A stretch of DNA of 64,000 nt from a bacterium (GTDB lineage Bacteria; UBP6; UBA1177). A program made the position numbers and the translations under genes. Where the stretch lies: NCBI GenBank assembly GCA_016290135.1, contig JAEESW010000011.1:1-64000 (forward strand), in the 5' to 3' direction. The notes below the pieces were generated by a model, which saw only the letters and a list, made by a program, of their open reading frames with translations, was not told where the DNA came from and made no database searches. This document shows, one piece after another, positions 7,093 to 39,905 of this stretch (within the stretch, counting starts at the first letter, position 1; the number at the start of each line of letters is the position of its first letter).

Positions 7093-7989
7093 ATGTCAGA
7101 AGAAAAAGTTTTGCTTTATAAACTCCTTAAAGGCTGGGAGGATGCGCTTCCCGACGAACTTGTTCCTGCTGTGAAGGATTTTGTCGATGCCCAGCCGGAC
7201 ACTGCCGTTGCCGAATTTTTGAAGAAATACGAGGCGGCCGGAGTCGACTGGGGATACTCCGAGGGCTCAGGATTTGTCCGCAGCATAATGAAAATGGTGC
7301 TTGACGCTATGCTGAGATTCGATGTCAGAGGTGCTGAAAACATGGATGCCGCGCTTAAACTTCTTGCGGAAGGAAAGGCTGACAGGCTCGTTTTCGTCGC
7401 AAACCATGTCAGTTATGCCGATGCGAATATCTTCGCGACAGCTTTTGACAGCAACTTCGAAAAAGCCGGGCTTGCCGGAAAACTTGCAGTTATAGCCGGT
7501 CCCAAAGTTTTTTCGCACCCTGTGAGAAAATTCGCAAGCATGCACTTCGACTCTCTTCTTATCGCTCAGTCGCAGACAGTTGCCACGATGCCTGTCGCAT
7601 ACCCGATCCGCGTCATCGCGAGAGCTGCGTCGATGGTGGTCGAAGATATCAAGGCAAAAGTAAAGATGTTCCTTGTTTTTCCTGAAGGCAAAAGAAGCCG
7701 TGACGGTAGTATGGACCATTTTCTTGCCGGAGTTTACAGGATGATAGACACCGGAGAGAATGTCCTCGTTCAGCCCGTCTCGGTCTTGGGCGGCGAAAAG
7801 ATGCTCCCGATCTCCCAGGGAAAACTTCATCCTGCCGATGTGTCGATCAATGTCGGCAAGGCACAGTATGTCTCCGATATTCTTGAAGAGATCGGCGAGG
7901 TGCAAGGCGTGAAACAGGCGTTTATGGACAACCTCGGAAAAAAAGTTGCGGCTCTTCATCCCGAAGAGTTGCGCGGGGTCTACAAATAG
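7093..7989 (+). CDS. PlsC-like 1-acyl-sn-glycerol-3-phosphate acyltransferase
   Basis: 298 residues from ATG 7093, preferred over ATG 7081 because GGAG sits six bases upstream of it. The acyltransferase HX4D motif is present as NHVSYAD, and block III appears as FPEGKRSRDG. Family members transfer an acyl chain to lysophosphatidate or a related lipid at the inner membrane. There is no obvious membrane anchor, and the N-terminal ~85 residues before the catalytic domain are unassigned. First gene of a tight run with two lipoproteins, LolA and an M16 peptidase, which points to envelope lipid or lipoprotein work. The exact acceptor lipid is unknown. Confidence 0.75.
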   Translation: MSEEKVLLYKLLKGWEDALPDELVPAVKDFVDAQPDTAVAEFLKKYEAAGVDWGYSEGSGFVRSIMKMVLDAMLRFDVRGAENMDAALKLLAEGKADRLVFVANHVSYADANIFATAFDSNFEKAGLAGKLAVIAGPKVFSHPVRKFASMHFDSLLIAQSQTVATMPVAYPIRVIARAASMVVEDIKAKVKMFLVFPEGKRSRDGSMDHFLAGVYRMIDTGENVLVQPVSVLGGEKMLPISQGKLHPADVSINVGKAQYVSDILEEIGEVQGVKQAFMDNLGKKVAALHPEELRGVYK

Positions 7990-34142: not shown

Positions 34143-35213
34143 TTATACCGACGGAGTTGTGAAAACTCTCCAGAATCCCTGGTCATCCTTTTCTATGTAT
34201 CCGTTTTTCTGAAGCGACTGCAGCATTTTCTGCAGGGCAGAGCGGTTTATTCCGATTTCATTCTGAAGATATGACAAGGTCGCCTTCGGTTCGATCTGGA
34301 GCTCGCGGAGGATCTTCCCGTAAGTCGGAGTCCTGAAAGCTATGCGCTCTCCGTCATACCACCAGACATTTTCGTCTTTTTCAGTCACAAAAAGGATGTC
34401 GTTTTCCACTTCGTGCGTTATCAGTTCGACCATGTATTTGTGAAACGGGCGGATATTTTTCAAAGAGGCTTTTACTCCGTCTGACGGTATCGGACCGACT
34501 ATCAGATCGGCGCTGTGCAGCGCGTCAAGATACTCCTTTTTCAGGCGGCTGCGCACAACTATCATGGGCAGACCGTGCCTTGAAAGAATATAGTTGACCA
34601 AGAGCCTTGCGATACGCCCGTTACCGTCCTCAAACGGATGAATGCGGATAAACCTGTAATGAAATAGAACCGCTATATCTACAGGCGAAAACAAATCATC
34701 CTGCTCAGCCTTATTGTACCAGTCCACAAGATCAGCCATAAATGCCGGAGTCTCCTCTGGAGATGCATAATCAAAACGCTCGCCGTAACGGGTTATGACG
34801 CTGTTCGGACGAGTCTTGTACTGCCCGGCGTGGACCGTGTAACCGACCTGCATCCCGTCAGGAAGCGTGCGCGAAACATCATAATCCTCGCGTATCAAAG
34901 TTTTGTGCAGAGCCCTGATAAAATTCTGAGTAAGCGGCTGCTGTGCTTCCGCAGCCTCATTCAGCATCATTTTCAAACCGAGATCACTTGCCTTCATCTC
35001 CTCGTATTCACGAAAATCTGCCACGCCGATCACTTTGTCAAAAAGCAGGAGAAGTTCCGTCTGCCCGTAAGTGAGAGTATTTCCTTCAATGTGGTTGCTA
35101 TTGTAGTTGAAATCGACGGTGAAACGACGGCTCAACCTCCCCTTGTCGATTTCAGAAAGCGGCTGCAGCCGCTCCCATCTTTCCAATGCGCTCAAAAGTT
35201 TTTTGTTTTCCAT
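34143..35213 (-). CDS. Fic-family protein with C-terminal winged helix
   Basis: 356 residues from ATG 35213 (GGAGG six bases upstream; a longer frame to 35285 runs through the operator). The Fic motif HPFEDGNGRIARLL is complete, and an inhibitory-type alpha-helix motif is suggested by FNYNSNHIEGNTLTYGQ (S/TxxxE(G)N) near the N-terminus. The C-terminus (EIGINRSALQKMLQSLQKNG) is a helix-turn-helix, as in Fic proteins that regulate themselves. Fic enzymes AMPylate target proteins. Two palindromic sites upstream are likely its own operators. Confidence 0.9.
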   Translation of the reverse strand: MENKKLLSALERWERLQPLSEIDKGRLSRRFTVDFNYNSNHIEGNTLTYGQTELLLLFDKVIGVADFREYEEMKASDLGLKMMLNEAAEAQQPLTQNFIRALHKTLIREDYDVSRTLPDGMQVGYTVHAGQYKTRPNSVITRYGERFDYASPEETPAFMADLVDWYNKAEQDDLFSPVDIAVLFHYRFIRIHPFEDGNGRIARLLVNYILSRHGLPMIVVRSRLKKEYLDALHSADLIVGPIPSDGVKASLKNIRPFHKYMVELITHEVENDILFVTEKDENVWWYDGERIAFRTPTYGKILRELQIEPKATLSYLQNEIGINRSALQKMLQSLQKNGYIEKDDQGFWRVFTTPSV

Positions 35214-35238
35214 GAAAGCCTCCGAACCACCAATTTCG

Positions 35239-35254
35239 GTGGTAACATTACCAC
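35239..35254. promoter_or_regulatory. Palindromic operator site 1 of the Fic gene
   Basis: GTGGTAACATTACCAC, a perfect 16-base palindrome, 26 bases before the Fic start. Shares its half-site with site 2. Lies where RNA polymerase should bind for the minus-strand gene. Confidence 0.65.
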
Positions 35255-35312
35255 TTAAAATACCATTTTTTTGGTTAATACGCAAGATTTTTTGTTAAAA
35301 ACCACTCAATAA

Positions 35313-35330
35313 GGTGGTAAGCTTACCACC
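35313..35330. promoter_or_regulatory. Palindromic operator site 2 of the Fic gene
   Basis: GGTGGTAAGCTTACCACC, a perfect 18-base palindrome with the same GTGGTAA half-site as site 1, centre-to-centre 75 bases away. Another half-site-like ACCACT stands at 35301. The spacing of about seven helical turns would suit cooperative or looped binding. Confidence 0.65.
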
Positions 35331-35842
35331 AAAAGCCCCTATTTTTCACTTTGGTGAGAAATCTTAAAGTAGAAACATATGCCAGAAACGGCGAAAAAAT
35401 GTGTTCAGATAACAGAAATTTGCCAGAAAACCGGTCAGCCGTACGCCGTTTTGTTGAAAAAACGGTACTTTTGTCATGTTTTAATATTGAAAAAACAGTA
35501 CTTTTGAGAAAAATCTGCAATAATATTCGATAGAATTCAGTTAGATCCGAAAATCGGAACTAGACTTGCAGCTGGAACCTGTTTATATGCTTCCTTTTAC
35601 GGTTGAAGATTTTTCTTAAAAACTTGTTTTTAAATACGATTTTTCTAAAATCTCCCGTTTTTTTTGATAATTTAATTTGAAGACAAAATGATGCTCAACG
35701 CAACGCAACGCAATTATCAGGACAGTGTCGCCAGCTTAAATCCAAGTCAAGGTTTTCGACCGGAAAAATTCAGATTTTTTCAATAATTATAGTCTGTTGC
35801 CAAAGGCAACATTTTTTATCATTTTATTAAAAGGAGAGAAAA
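35331..35842. other. AT-rich intergenic stretch, no supported gene
   Basis: About 510 bases between the Fic operators and the next gene. Short open frames exist on both strands (for example 35323-35520) but lack ribosome sites and lean on the repeat described separately. It also contains a short AACGC triple run at about 35697-35713. A promoter for 35843 should lie in the last 100 bases; I see no good match. Confidence 0.5.
35454..35506. repeat. Two 20-base near-identical direct repeats
   Basis: TTGAAAAAACGGTACTTTTG at 35454-35473 and TTGAAAAAACAGTACTTTTG at 35487-35506 differ at one base and begin 33 bases apart. GTAC at the centre makes each weakly palindromic. Could be binding sites or remains of an insertion. 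Confidence 0.7.
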
Positions 35843-36400
35843 ATGAGAGAAGAAGAATTTACTGCCAAACTTGTGTCAACTATCAATGCAAAATTTGCTG
35901 AAATTATGGCGGCAAAACCGGCTGACGCCAAATTTCTTAACTATCTTGATGCATTAGCCATTTCGCAAAGTGTAAGAAATGTTTTTATCAACACCAAACT
36001 TAATTATGTTCCGAATTTGATTGAAGCCGTATTGAATATGTGTGAAGCCGTCATGTCTCCTACTAAAACTGAGAAAATAGAAAAAATAAAGAAAGCCGGA
36101 GGACTTTTGGGCGGTACCACCGGAATTGCAATGATAATCGCTGGCATTGCCACTGCTTTTGGCTGGGGAGCAGGTGTAATTGCCGCTATCACGGCATTTT
36201 TCGTAGGAGTATCTCTTGTCCCCGTAATAGGTTGGATAGTAGGCGGAGTCAGCTTGGCAGTTATTGCCGGATATTTTGCTTTTTCCGGTAGCGATCCGAT
36301 AAAAAACACAGAAAGCTATATGAATGCACTGAGAGATGGTGTAACAAAAGCTATGCCGGAAGTTTGGAAAGAATTTGGGGACGAGTTGAGCAATGATTGA
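35843..36400 (+). CDS. Unrecognised membrane protein, first gene of a two-gene module
   Basis: 185 residues, AGGAGAG before the ATG. Residues 1-65 are soluble helical; about 85-150 form two to three Gly-rich membrane helices (GGLLGGTTGIAMIIAGIATA, VSLVPVIGWIVGGVSLAVIA), and a short hydrophilic tail follows. No signal peptide. Gly-zipper-like helices recall proteins that insert into membranes, such as bacteriocins or pore formers, but nothing specific is recognised. Overlaps the next gene by eight bases and shares its AT-rich composition, unlike flanking housekeeping genes. Confidence 0.7.
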   Translation: MREEEFTAKLVSTINAKFAEIMAAKPADAKFLNYLDALAISQSVRNVFINTKLNYVPNLIEAVLNMCEAVMSPTKTEKIEKIKKAGGLLGGTTGIAMIIAGIATAFGWGAGVIAAITAFFVGVSLVPVIGWIVGGVSLAVIAGYFAFSGSDPIKNTESYMNALRDGVTKAMPEVWKEFGDELSND

Positions 36401-37523
36401 TCATCTTCCTTTAAAGATTAGCGTCTTAACCGGAAATGTCGCTTACGGTTTTATTCCTGCAGAAACATTGCGTCACAATGTAGATAAACTTTTTCCGTAT
36501 CTTTCAAAATGTGAAATTGCAGATAGTGCATCCGGTTATCTCCACAGATGGCGCGAAGGACACGATTTATTGGTTGATATTCCCTCAACATTAGCGGATA
36601 AAGGATTCGGAGAGGCTACCCATCATGCCGGGCACATACTATTTACTGATTTTCCGACAAAAGCTGGAATTCCAATCCCCGGATTTTCACAATCCGGATT
36701 GGGAGAAATACTTAAAAATTTCAATATTTCGCCAGGTTGGATGAATTTGTCTCTTTTCGATACTGGAATCGGTTTCTTTTGTGTTGCTGAAGGTTGTGGA
36801 GATTTATACTCCGCCATAGCAGGAAATTTGGAGATGTCTTTTGAAACATTCGTTGACACTTTCGGGGAAGGCGCATTAGAAATTGCCTTAGCTGTTTCTG
36901 CACAAAATCCTATATTGCTTGCAGGAGGTATTGAAAATATCATAGCTGGTTTAGTTTCGGCATGGAAAACTTATACTTACTATGTTGATCCAGTTGATTT
37001 TTTCGGTGGAGCCGCAGGAGGTGCCATTGTTGGAGGACTTCTTACGCTTCTATTTTCAAAAGAGCCGACATTGCAAGGAAAGATGATTCAAAGTCTTAAA
37101 AACGCATCAAAATCAGCAGCGTTAGGCGGATTATTTACAGTCAAATCCTTCTTCGGATACGGAGCCCTGCTCGGAATGTTAGCGTATCAACTTGGAAATA
37201 TTGCCGCAAAAAAGGATTGTGAGAAAATTGCAAAAACCTACTCTATTGATGTGAAATCATTTGACTGTTTTCTTAAAACTGTTTGCGAAGGAAATCAAAA
37301 ATTTATGGATTTCTGGAACTCAAGTTTCAGCTGCAAAACTTTTGATGATTCGGCAGAAAATCTGAAGCTGAACAACAAACCACAAATATATTTTGAAAAC
37401 TGTGATTTTCTGTTTGATGATTCGACTACGGAAGTCTTCGACTCTTCCTCAAAAACTTTGGATGATTCCTCAACAGAACTCTTCGACACATCTGCAAAAA
37501 CTTTTGACGATTCGGACAATTAA
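36393..37523 (+). CDS. Unrecognised protein with hydrophobic Gly-rich core and FDDS-repeat tail, second gene of the module
   Basis: 376 residues, start overlapping the previous gene. Residues 1-160 are soluble with several conserved-looking patches (REGHDLLVDIPSTLADKGFG, THHAGHILFTDFPTKAGIPI). Residues 175-270 hold hydrophobic Gly/Ala-rich stretches (AAGGAIVGGLLTLLF, FGYGALLGMLAYQLGNIAAK). The last 45 residues are imperfect repeats around FDDSS(T/K) (DDSTTEVFDSSSKTLDDSST). The repeat tail and translational coupling suggest that both proteins act in one complex. I cannot name a family. Confidence 0.7.
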   Translation: MIDHLPLKISVLTGNVAYGFIPAETLRHNVDKLFPYLSKCEIADSASGYLHRWREGHDLLVDIPSTLADKGFGEATHHAGHILFTDFPTKAGIPIPGFSQSGLGEILKNFNISPGWMNLSLFDTGIGFFCVAEGCGDLYSAIAGNLEMSFETFVDTFGEGALEIALAVSAQNPILLAGGIENIIAGLVSAWKTYTYYVDPVDFFGGAAGGAIVGGLLTLLFSKEPTLQGKMIQSLKNASKSAALGGLFTVKSFFGYGALLGMLAYQLGNIAAKKDCEKIAKTYSIDVKSFDCFLKTVCEGNQKFMDFWNSSFSCKTFDDSAENLKLNNKPQIYFENCDFLFDDSTTEVFDSSSKTLDDSSTELFDTSAKTFDDSDN

Positions 37524-37557
37524 GAAATAGTCATTAACGGCAAGTAAAAAACGCTGA

Positions 37558-37656
37558 AGAACGACAATTTTCAAAATCGCAAACGCTCTCGAAGTCAAAC
37601 CTCATTATTTAGTCAAAAAAGTTAAAGAAAACCTGAACGGCGAAGTTCAGGGATGA
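37558..37656 (+). pseudogene. 3' remnant of an XRE-family helix-turn-helix regulator
   Basis: A 32-codon frame after an in-frame TGA reads RTTIFKIANALEVKPHYLVK and ends at TGA 37654. TIFKIANALEVKP is the standard end of the XRE recognition region (compare the usual TL.KIA.AL.V.P). No start codon or N-terminal half survives. It sits four bases from the end of the convergent toxin gene. Confidence 0.5.
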
Positions 37657-37659
37657 TAT

Positions 37660-37938
37660 TCAGAACAAATCGCTGTGAGTTCCTGTTCGGTACAAGGACA
37701 AAACAAGAACATCTTCCGAGATTTTATAAACCAAAAGCCAGTCAGGTTCGATATGGCATTCGCGATAACCGCTGTATATCTTGCCCTTTAAAGCATGATC
37801 CGAGTATTTTTGAGGCAGTTTTTCACCATCCGCAAGCAAAGTTATTGCTGTTTTGAGTTTTGAAATGTCACAGCCGCGCTTTACGGCCTGTTTATAATCC
37901 TTTTTAAATTGGGTAGTTATCTGTATCGAGTATTTCAT
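37660..37938 (-). CDS. RelE/YafQ-type mRNA interferase toxin
   Basis: 92 residues. FKKDYKQAVKRGCDISKLKT, then ALKGKIYSGYRECHIEPDWLLVYK and the end LYRTGTHSDLF match YafQ: the conserved His/Asp/Tyr-Arg surface and the C-terminal GTHSDLF. YafQ cuts mRNA on the ribosome. The start codon shares one base with the antitoxin stop, the typical TA arrangement. Confidence 0.9.
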   Translation of the reverse strand: MKYSIQITTQFKKDYKQAVKRGCDISKLKTAITLLADGEKLPQKYSDHALKGKIYSGYRECHIEPDWLLVYKISEDVLVLSLYRTGTHSDLF

Positions 37939-38219
37939 TAAGAATCAAGTTCCTCGAAAAGCTCGTCCACGCTTGAGAATTTTTTTGCATTAGGATCATT
38001 GATCATGCTGTCTCCCTCTTTCAATGCGGCTATTGTAACGGCATTCGGGTTTTCGATACGCACCTCGAACGGAAATCCGTGATGATATATTGCCTGCCTT
38101 AAAAAAACATTGATCGCGGTCGTCATATCCATTCCAAGAGCAGCAAAAAGCTGCTGAGCCTCCTGTTTTACCGCTTTGTTCATTCTGATAGTCATACTCG
38201 TGTCCGTGTTTGCCGCCAT
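37938..38219 (-). CDS. RelB/DinJ-type antitoxin
   Basis: 93 residues from ATG 38219, chosen for GGAGG nine bases upstream. The N-terminal ribbon-helix-helix (SMTIRMNKAVKQEAQQLFAA, GMDMTTAINVFLRQAIYHHG) binds DNA, and the C-terminal KKFSSVDELFEELD wraps the toxin. It should repress its own promoter directly upstream. Confidence 0.92.
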   Translation of the reverse strand: MAANTDTSMTIRMNKAVKQEAQQLFAALGMDMTTAINVFLRQAIYHHGFPFEVRIENPNAVTIAALKEGDSMINDPNAKKFSSVDELFEELDS

Positions 38220-38254
38220 AATTATTAACCTCCAAACCAACCAAAACAGATAAA

Positions 38255-38306: not shown

Positions 38307-39905
38307 TCAGCTGTACATCATCGCGAGATCGCGCAGTCTTTCGGCGATCTTGTCGATCGGAGTGACTGTTTTGTCGGTCGTGGCGAAGAATGTGCCCCAG
38401 CCGGCTGCCGATTTCAGGCCTTTGCTGTAGAATTTGCGGATAAAGGGGTCGTTTTTTTCCACGAACATCCGGATGTCGTGCTCGGTGAAGGGGAAGACGA
38501 TGTCCATTCCGACGCTTTCGCCGAGATATTTTTTCATGACGAGGATGCGCGAATTGAGGTCTTTGTTGGAAACATGCGAGCTTTTCGCCTCGAGAATGTG
38601 GAGGTAGCCGTTTTTGAAGACGACGAGAGTGTCGATTTCAATGAGCGAACTTGCCTTACCGCTCAGTTTCACGTTCTGGAAAACCGATGCGATCGACTCT
38701 TTGAGGAGCGGATACTTCTCCATCGCGCGGCACACGGCGTAACTAATGATTTTTTCAAAGATCACGGATATTTGCGAGCGAGTGTTGAGAGTGCTTTCGC
38801 GCTCGATTTCTTTCACATATTTCTGCTTGAAGCGGTTGAAAACGGCTGATGTCACATCCATGCTTTTGACATCGGCGAGAGAGGTCGTTTTTTCAGAAAT
38901 TTTGGAAAAAAGAACGTCTAAAAAGTGCTGGACATCGCTTCTGAGGTCGGCTTTGTCGACTTCTCCGGCAAGCGGAAGGATCTTTCTGATGACCGCGTCC
39001 GGCATTTCAGCGTTGAATTTTTTCTGGCAGCCTGCAAGAGTCGTCCTGAAATCAAAGGAATCGGAGAAAGTCTGAAGTTCTCTTCTGCGGCTCATTTCGT
39101 TAAAGAAATCGGTGAGTTTTACCTTTATTTCGTTTTTTGCCGCATTGATTTCTGGGCGCAGGTGAGGCATTACACCGAAGATCCTCTGCAAAAACTTGTC
39201 GATCTGCTCTTCGCGGAAATTCTTCACCATAAAATCGTGAAGTTCCCCTTTGAGGTCGATGATCGTTTTCATGTTGTCGTAGGACGAGAAGAAGGCCCGC
39301 AGATTCATTGAGTTGCAGAGATTGGTGTAAAGCTCCTCAAACTGATCGGCGTTTTCCGCGAAATAATTCGTTTTGCCGTCATAAATCGTAAGAAAATCGG
39401 TAAGTTCCGCTCCGTAAAGGGTGAGACGCTCCTTCAGGTGCCAGTCGATCGAAACCGAGGATTTGTATTCGCGGAAAGACTGCTCTTTTATCGCGATCTT
39501 ATTGATCTGGCGCGTATCGAGATCGAAATATACGAGGAAAAAATCGAGATCCTGCTTTTCGGAAAAACGCTTGAGATACTCAGCGAAAACGATCCTGTGG
39601 ATCCCTTTTCCGCAGGAGGCGTCGCAGTAGATCTCGGTGATTCCGTATTCGTCGAAAACGCTTCTGACATGCCTTTTTAGCATCTCGATGATTTCGCCAA
39701 GATTCATATTTTTCTCAATGAAAACATTGATATACTTGATGTCTTCGCCGTCAGCGCGTTTCACTAAAACCGGAATATTTTTGTGCCAGTCGTTTTCCTG
39801 CGCCATCACGGTCGAGACAAAAATTATGACATCGGGAGCGGCTTCACGGATGAGAGATGCCTGAACGACAGTCTGACGCGAAAGGATCGTTACGAGAAGT
39901 TTCAT
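38307..39905 (-). CDS. CARF-domain, PD-(D/E)XK nuclease-like protein (Card1/Can2/DUF1887 type)
   Basis: 532 residues, overlapping nfo by one base (TAATG). Residues 1-150 look like a CARF Rossmann domain: [20 protein letters not shown], then PDVIIFVST, and later IYCDASCGKGIHRIVF. The C-terminal region (about 415-450) has EIDTLVVFKNGYLHILEAKS, which matches the D...E.K pattern of PD-(D/E)XK nucleases in DUF1887 proteins. In type III CRISPR systems such enzymes are switched on by cyclic oligoadenylate. Longer than usual, with a ~200-residue helical middle. No CRISPR or cas gene is visible in the window. Confidence 0.6.
   Translation of the reverse strand: MKLLVTILSRQTVVQASLIREAAPDVIIFVSTVMAQENDWHKNIPVLVKRADGEDIKYINVFIEKNMNLGEIIEMLKRHVRSVFDEYGITEIYCDASCGKGIHRIVFAEYLKRFSEKQDLDFFLVYFDLDTRQINKIAIKEQSFREYKSSVSIDWHLKERLTLYGAELTDFLTIYDGKTNYFAENADQFEELYTNLCNSMNLRAFFSSYDNMKTIIDLKGELHDFMVKNFREEQIDKFLQRIFGVMPHLRPEINAAKNEIKVKLTDFFNEMSRRRELQTFSDSFDFRTTLAGCQKKFNAEMPDAVIRKILPLAGEVDKADLRSDVQHFLDVLFSKISEKTTSLADVKSMDVTSAVFNRFKQKYVKEIERESTLNTRSQISVIFEKIISYAVCRAMEKYPLLKESIASVFQNVKLSGKASSLIEIDTLVVFKNGYLHILEAKSSHVSNKDLNSRILVMKKYLGESVGMDIVFPFTEHDIRMFVEKNDPFIRKFYSKGLKSAAGWGTFFATTDKTVTPIDKIAERLRDLAMMYS

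What the first reader, a model, noticed from the sequence alone, without database searches (positions are those of the whole stretch)
35239..35330. Paired palindromic operators in front of a Fic protein
GTGGTAA-CA-TTACCAC and GGTGGTAA-GC-TTACCACC share the same half-site, 75 bases centre to centre, and flank the expected promoter. The Fic protein has its own C-terminal helix-turn-helix, so self-repression tied to AMPylation state is plausible.
Basis: partly seen in the sequence, partly recalled or inferred. Interest (0 to 1): 0.58.

Follow-up and report, generated by a model that had tools for sequence, protein, structure and literature searches.

The report
Self-regulating Fic enzyme's DNA switch
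A bacterial Fic enzyme carries its own DNA-binding domain, and the DNA just in front of its gene holds matching landing sites that change in step with that domain across relatives, so the enzyme very probably switches off its own gene; this is a known kind of control in a so far unstudied branch of the family.

Summary
The two palindromes are real (35239-35254 and 35313-35330, 75 nt apart) and each belongs to a longer three-half-site composite, GTGGT-N6-ACCAC-N8-GTGG, in the fic sense. All 9 fic orthologues found in the genus carry the promoter-proximal composite, in differing contexts; 4 of 9 carry both. Over wider relatives, 78 of 123 Fic proteins with a C-terminal winged helix have such an inverted site upstream, against 0 of 16 relatives with a different C-terminus and 4.8 of 123 in shuffles. 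Two half-site bases change in step with two recognition-helix residues: N323/S323 with G/T, Q328 versus K/R328 with T/C. These are the top-ranked columns of the whole protein. Fic therefore very probably binds its own promoter region through its own winged helix. Autorepression by a class II Fic-HTH protein is already published (CccR), so this is a new variant: another subfamily, another operator geometry (a half-site array, with second operators spaced at whole helical turns), and a readable specificity code. No binding or expression data exist here.

The parts
34143..35213 (-). fic gene, 356 aa; class II Fic (inhibitory motif S39-NHIEG, active site HPFEDGNGR) with C-terminal winged helix (about 296-354; recognition helix 324-336, with N323 just before it and Q328 inside)
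   Evidence: ORF; Pfam; predicted structure (10-residue block means 84-93 over the winged helix); class II motif read by eye against the consensus quoted in PMC9755527
35226..35255 (-). proximal composite operator, three half-sites AGTGGT-aatgtt-ACCACC-gaaatt-GGTGGT; holds the first palindrome 35239-35254
   Evidence: present at 9 of 9 orthologues in the genus
35301..35330 (-). distal composite operator GGTGGT-aagctt-ACCACC-ttattg-AGTGGT; holds the second palindrome 35313-35330
   Evidence: present at 4 of 9 orthologues in the genus (spacing 74-75 nt)
35257..35285 (-). possible promoter TTGCGT-N17-TATTTT (weak; read by eye only)
   Evidence: sequence; not listed by the promoter scan
35219..35223 (-). 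ribosome-binding sequence GGAGG, five bases before the fic ATG; the third half-site of the proximal operator ends two bases upstream of it
   Evidence: sequence; GGAG also present at the genus orthologues shown

Best explanation
The palindromes are operators of the fic gene itself. Fic dimers (or higher oligomers) bind the half-site GGTGGT through the C-terminal winged helix; the proximal array covers the region from the probable transcription start to just before the ribosome-binding site, so binding would block transcription and hold fic expression low. A third half-site 12 bp further on extends the array, and a second array a whole number of helical turns upstream would let bound Fic molecules on the same DNA face contact each other and tighten repression. 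Shown by comparison: the sites, their linkage to the gene, their dependence on the winged helix, and the residue-base pairing. Inferred: actual binding, repression as the sign, and cooperativity. Not shown: any effect of AMPylation.
For: Proximal composite at 9 of 9 orthologues (87-100% identical) in differing gene contexts. 21 composites with at most 1 mismatch in 15 genus genomes against 4 for the reversed pattern: 13 at fic genes, 8 at 7 places without a fic gene. Of 181 loci gathered, 139 usable (42 dropped, reasons); with a caller that fixes only the outer GT, 78 of 123 winged-helix Fic genes have a site, 0 of 16 without winged helix, shuffles mean 4.8 (max 9) of 123, reversed sequence 8 of 123. 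Base at offset 6 against residue 323: S-T 40, N-G 34, Q-A 1, exceptions 2 of 77; base at offset 4 against residue 328: Q-T 64, K-C 7, R-C 2, D-T 1, Q-A 1 of 75. Each is rank 1 of all protein columns, and remains so after clustering at 95% and 85% identity. Residues 323/328 lie at or in the recognition helix. Paired operators are spaced 64-66, 74-75, 84-85 and 148 nt; phasing at 10.5 bp over six clade means, Monte Carlo p 0.003, free period p 0.016. Precedent: CccR represses its own promoter through palindromes near -35 and -10 (PMC9755527, passages).
Against: No binding, footprint or expression data. The covarying changes come from few independent events (2 and 1 independent pairs on well-supported branches; sign test not significant), and at 75% clustering (8 sequences) the ranks fall to 10 and 185. 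45 of 123 winged-helix relatives have no called site (some of these carry asymmetric sites, others may use unrelated ones). Promoter position is not established, so repression rather than activation rests on analogy and position. Two lone composites lie between convergent genes (G000:C21, G023:C44), where no promoter control is expected.
Confidence: 0.82

Rival explanations
1. The operators are bound by another regulator encoded elsewhere in the host, and fic is one of its targets.
For: Repressor sites in front of a toxin-like gene are sometimes bound by unlinked regulators (general knowledge); no direct binding data here.
Against: The sites follow the gene into Bacteroidales and Fibrobacter records, are absent in 16 of 16 relatives with another C-terminus, and covary with Fic recognition-helix residues. 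In the genome the composite (at most 1 mismatch) is found only at fic and one convergent intergenic spot. Of the other eight Fic-domain places in the genome, seven were read and none shows the NRSA helix; the eighth was not read.
Confidence: 0.08
2. The palindromes act as RNA hairpins in the fic leader (attenuation or translation control).
For: The proximal composite lies just upstream of the ribosome-binding site and can form two alternative stems (ACCACC pairs with either neighbour).
Against: The sites of the S-type clade are centred about 50-80 bases upstream and, in the examples read, before the TAnnTTTG box, so outside the likely transcript; residue-base covariation with a DNA-recognition helix is not expected for an RNA structure. 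It could act in addition.
Confidence: 0.05
3. The composites are ends or scars of a mobile element that carried fic, without regulatory role.
For: fic is patchy (7 of 25 order genomes) and composites remain at 7 places without a fic gene; sequence above the operator changes abruptly between loci.
Against: No further composite within at most 1 mismatch at the other end of fic at these loci. Three of the seven lone places carry fic 3' remnants next to the operator (L040, L041, L042), so they look like fic deletions. Covariation with the winged helix is unexplained.
Confidence: 0.05

Closest known systems
CccR (YPK_0951) of Yersinia pseudotuberculosis, PMC9755527; structure 7XUX (that 7XUX is CccR is inferred from length, title and date)
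   Same: Class II Fic domain, C-terminal HTH, palindromic operator at its own promoter, negative autoregulation (shown there by footprint, reporter, EMSA).
   Different: Sequence match limited to the Fic core (7XUX E 5e-7, residues 154-215). Operator there is two 10-bp inverted repeats separated by 26 bp; here the half-sites are 5-6 bp with 6-8 bp between them, in arrays of 3 or 4. No secretion-system link was tested here.
CbFic2 of Coxiella burnetii, PMC10628234, structure 8CIL
   Same: Class II Fic with C-terminal winged helix that binds DNA; fold match.
   Different: The DNA in the passages seen was a randomised oligomer and the work concerns (de)AMPylation of histone H3; no own operator in the passages seen.
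BT_2513 of Bacteroides thetaiotaomicron, structure 3CUC
   Same: Closest solved relative of the Fic part (E 8.8e-92, residues 10-265; top fold match).
   Different: Solved chain is 291 residues and its match stops before the winged helix; no paper naming BT_2513 with Fic in the library searched.
SoFic (SO_4266) of Shewanella oneidensis, structures 3EQX and 3ZCN
   Same: Fic protein with C-terminal winged helix.
   Different: DNA binding not shown experimentally according to PMC10628234; sequence model matches only residues 149-215, far below its cut-off.

Membership tests
Class II Fic protein | Fic core with HxFx(D/E)GN(G/K)R motif | tested here: met
   PF02661 E 4.8e-21; HPFEDGNGR at residues 192-200, invariant in 26 aligned relatives
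Class II Fic protein | inhibitory (S/T)xxxE(G/N) motif N-terminal to the Fic motif | tested here: met
   S39-NHI-E43-G44; E43 and G44 invariant, S39 at 90% or more; definition quoted
Autoregulating Fic-HTH protein (CccR-like in working) | C-terminal HTH DNA-binding domain | tested here: met
   HTH_24 above its cut-off; winged-helix topology in the predicted model
Autoregulating Fic-HTH protein (CccR-like in working) | inverted-repeat operator in front of its own gene | tested here: met
   9 of 9 genus orthologues; 78 of 123 winged-helix relatives
Autoregulating Fic-HTH protein (CccR-like in working) | protein binds the operator and represses transcription | not testable with these tools
   only indirect: base-residue covariation
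CccR/SoFic/CbFic2 sequence group (DUF4172-Fic-HTH) | N-terminal DUF4172 domain and full-length similarity | tested here: not met
   no DUF4172 match in Pfam at E 0.001; 7XUX and the SoFic model match only the Fic core. DUF4172 as a feature of this group is stated in PMC10628234
AMPylation-controlled repressor | operator binding depends on AMPylation state | not testable with these tools
   no data; the two papers seen differ on coupling

The most novel reading that the evidence does not exclude
The operator arrays are allosteric ligands as well as repressor sites: alternate half-sites every 12 bp, and second arrays on the same DNA face, would line up Fic molecules along the promoter DNA and shift them between an AMPylating monomer and a dimeric or oligomeric deAMPylating state, so that operator occupancy sets enzyme activity as well as fic transcription.
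Probability: 0.15. Interest if true: 0.75.

Novelty: new variant of a known kind. Interest (0 to 1): 0.45.

Why it matters
Class II Fic proteins with a winged helix are widespread, but cognate DNA is known for hardly any (CccR is the one case seen here). This family supplies natural operators with a simple code (residue 323 with the fourth base of GGTGGT, residue 328 with the sixth), a natural negative control (relatives with another C-terminus and no site) and several operator arrangements. That makes two open questions directly testable in harmless laboratory strains: whether these enzymes repress themselves as a rule, and whether binding cognate DNA changes AMPylation or deAMPylation.

Tried and rejected
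RNA hairpin, unlinked regulator and mobile-element end were considered and rated low (see rivals). A regulon was looked for: up to 3 mismatches in 15 genus genomes and the composite with 1 mismatch gave no recurring promoter of another gene among the places that were read. Of the 7 places without fic, L040 and L041 (119-126 nt of fic 3' end at up to about 95% identity) and L042 (last fic bases at the citF locus) are fic remnants; L038, L039, L043 and L044 show only the composite and its immediate flank against fic (34-59 nt; L039 and L040 also share a neighbouring ATPase gene with L012), L038 and L039 lying beside the same neighbour gene as L040 and L041. One more weak site, L037, is not a composite. 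Sigma-70 promoter between the sites: not supported by the scan. In one search the row L011 is wrong (the script took the start of a neighbouring gene); L011 was read correctly and later. The TAnnTTTG box (recalled Bacteroidetes promoter element) was found somewhere in the 200 nt upstream in 104 of 139 genes, which is not position-tested. The sign test on independent pairs could not reach significance with 1-2 pairs. The relaxed pair caller that added L091, L102, L173 and L212 to the 10 of 78 paired cases was written after seeing those sites, and the grouping into six clades for the phasing test is mine. The predicted Fic part of the model is of low confidence at residues 32-89, so no dimer model was attempted. 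Papers: PMC9755527 and PMC10628234 were seen as passages; all others as search listings only. Searches for prior reports of this family's operator; none found in that library.

Full report
What is there. The window's fic gene runs on the minus strand, 35213 to 34143, 356 aa. It has a Fic core and a C-terminal winged helix. The motif S39NHIEG places it in class II by the definition quoted in PMC9755527. In the fic sense each is followed by a third half-site, giving GTGGT-N6-ACCAC-N8-GTGG at 35302-35329 and 35227-35254. The half-sites alternate in direction every 12 bp.

Chance. Without mismatch, GTGGTAANNTTACCAC occurs only at these two places in the 2.47-Mb draft genome. A same-arm pair of perfect 7-2-7 palindromes within 200 nt arose in 1 of 100 dinucleotide shuffles of the window.

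Relatives in the genus. fic was found in 7 of 25 genomes of the order, all in the window's genus, at 9 places. All 9 carry the proximal composite without mismatch, 4 of 9 also the distal one. Neighbouring genes differ between several of these places. In 15 genus genomes the composite with at most one mismatch occurs 21 times, the reversed control 4 times: 13 of the 21 at fic, 8 at 7 places without a fic gene. Three of these seven are fic remnants. The lone site in the window's genome (G000:C21:11336-11363) and one in G023 (C44) lie between convergent genes. So no other gene of the genome is an evident target.

Wider relatives. 80 loci came from one scan of species genomes and most others from two samples, 33 of 393 genomes of one order and 57 of 399 genomes of one family with a match, with further stretches fetched. 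Of 181 loci 139 were usable; the 42 dropped are listed (no strong match, truncated, no start, short upstream, duplicates). 123 have the winged helix and 16 have another C-terminus by the rule. Perfect inverted repeats with even spacing are enriched upstream of the 123 (arm 6, gap 4: 59 genes against 6.4 in shuffles; gap 6: 49 against 5.2) and not upstream of the 16 (0 and 1). A caller that fixes only the outer GT of both arms found a site in 78 of 123, 0 of 16, 4.8 (max 9) of 123 in 50 shuffles, and 8 of 123 reversed sequences.

The code. Numbering half-site bases by their distance from the dyad (G9 G8 T7 N6 N5 N4 from outside in), base 6 is G with N323 (34), T with S323 (40) and A with Q323 (1), with 2 exceptions of 77; base 4 is T with Q328 (64), C with K328 or R328 (9 of 9), T with D328 (1), and one exception of 75. 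Of all protein columns compared, 323 ranks first for base 6 and 328 first for base 4, by plain and by normalised mutual information. The ranks (normalised) hold at 95% and 85% clustering (354 and 356 columns compared), and fail at 75%, where only 8 sequences remain. The predicted model puts 323 just before, and 328 in, the recognition helix 324-336. On a tree of the Fic part alone the traits change 3 to 4 times each; independent pairs are 2 and 1 on well-supported branches, all or nearly all in the expected direction, too few for a significant sign test. Shared descent affects all columns, so the ranking is the stronger argument.

Architecture. A third half-site at +24 is present in 22 of 29 called sites of the N.SA.Q type, 0 of 41 of the S type and 0 of 7 of the N.SA.K type. 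Second operators at least 30 nt away were found in 10 of 78 called genes, and in 4 more with a relaxed caller written afterwards. The distances are 74-75 (window clade), 84, 85, 64-66 (two clades) and 148 nt, that is about 7.1, 8.0, 8.1, 6.2 and 14.1 turns of 10.5 bp; over six clade means the phasing has a Monte Carlo p of 0.003, or 0.016 with a free period, and 0.002 to 0.013 leaving one group out. Same-face spacing suggests contact between molecules bound at the two operators; this is inference. In the window the two composites also form a 47-nt direct repeat at 70% identity, so the pair may have arisen by tandem duplication.

Mechanism. Most likely Fic binds its operators and represses its own transcription. 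Shown by comparison: sites, linkage, dependence on the winged helix, residue-base pairing. Inferred: binding, sign, cooperativity. In several Bacteroidales relatives the operator starts about 20 nt after a TAnnTTTG box (L067, L108, L155, L092), in the S type it lies just before it (L072, L076, L078), both fitting occlusion of the promoter; the box is recalled and not position-tested. In the window the promoter is not settled.

Known work. CccR of Y. pseudotuberculosis is a class II Fic with a C-terminal HTH that represses its own promoter by palindromes near -35 and -10; its repeats are 10 bp with 26 bp between, and its authors regard regulation and toxicity as independent (PMC9755527, passages). 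CbFic2 has a winged helix, binds DNA, and DNA stimulates its activities; its authors suggest that promoter DNA could induce a deAMPylating dimer in CccR (PMC10628234, passages). The window protein lies outside the CccR/SoFic sequence group; its closest solved relative is BT_2513 (3CUC). So the kind of control is known; the subfamily, operator geometry and code were not found in the library searched.

Verdict. New variant of a known kind, interest 0.45.

Noticed in passing
G000:C66:20116-21027 (L238, L261) and relatives L262-L265: A second Fic protein of the same genome, with an N-terminal HTH-like segment, has three direct copies of TTCCGATAAT (last base varies in one copy of L264) just upstream of its start, seen in all 5 full-length genus orthologues read: probably another self-regulated Fic with iteron-like sites.
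   Followed up: partly
G000:C35:11719-12597 (L242): A third Fic protein with an N-terminal HTH-like segment has TTGCCGTTATCGGCAA and a further TTGCCGATAA upstream; conservation was not read because the script printed only the window genome's row.
   Followed up: partly
[quoted passage not shown]
   Followed up: no
38310-39905 (-): 532-aa protein with a sub-threshold match to the Card1 CARF domain (E 4.5e-4); at G019 and G014 its homologue directly adjoins fic, so the genes at 35843-38222 look inserted in the window.
   Followed up: partly
35843-37520 (+): Two overlapping ORFs of unknown function; the first weakly resembles DUF6768 and the Bfe1 T6SS effector model, below both cut-offs; the second ends in acidic repeats.
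   Followed up: no
37663-38222 (-): YafQ-type toxin with RelB-type antitoxin.
   Followed up: no
35454-35506: Two copies of a 20-nt repeat, TTGAAAAAACGGTACTTTTG and TTGAAAAAACAGTACTTTTG, 33 nt apart in the long gap upstream of fic; use unknown.
   Followed up: no
L042 (G023:C9) 7289-7330: At the citF locus fic is missing, but two palindromes 24 nt apart, sharing half-sites, remain next to the last fic bases.
   Followed up: partly
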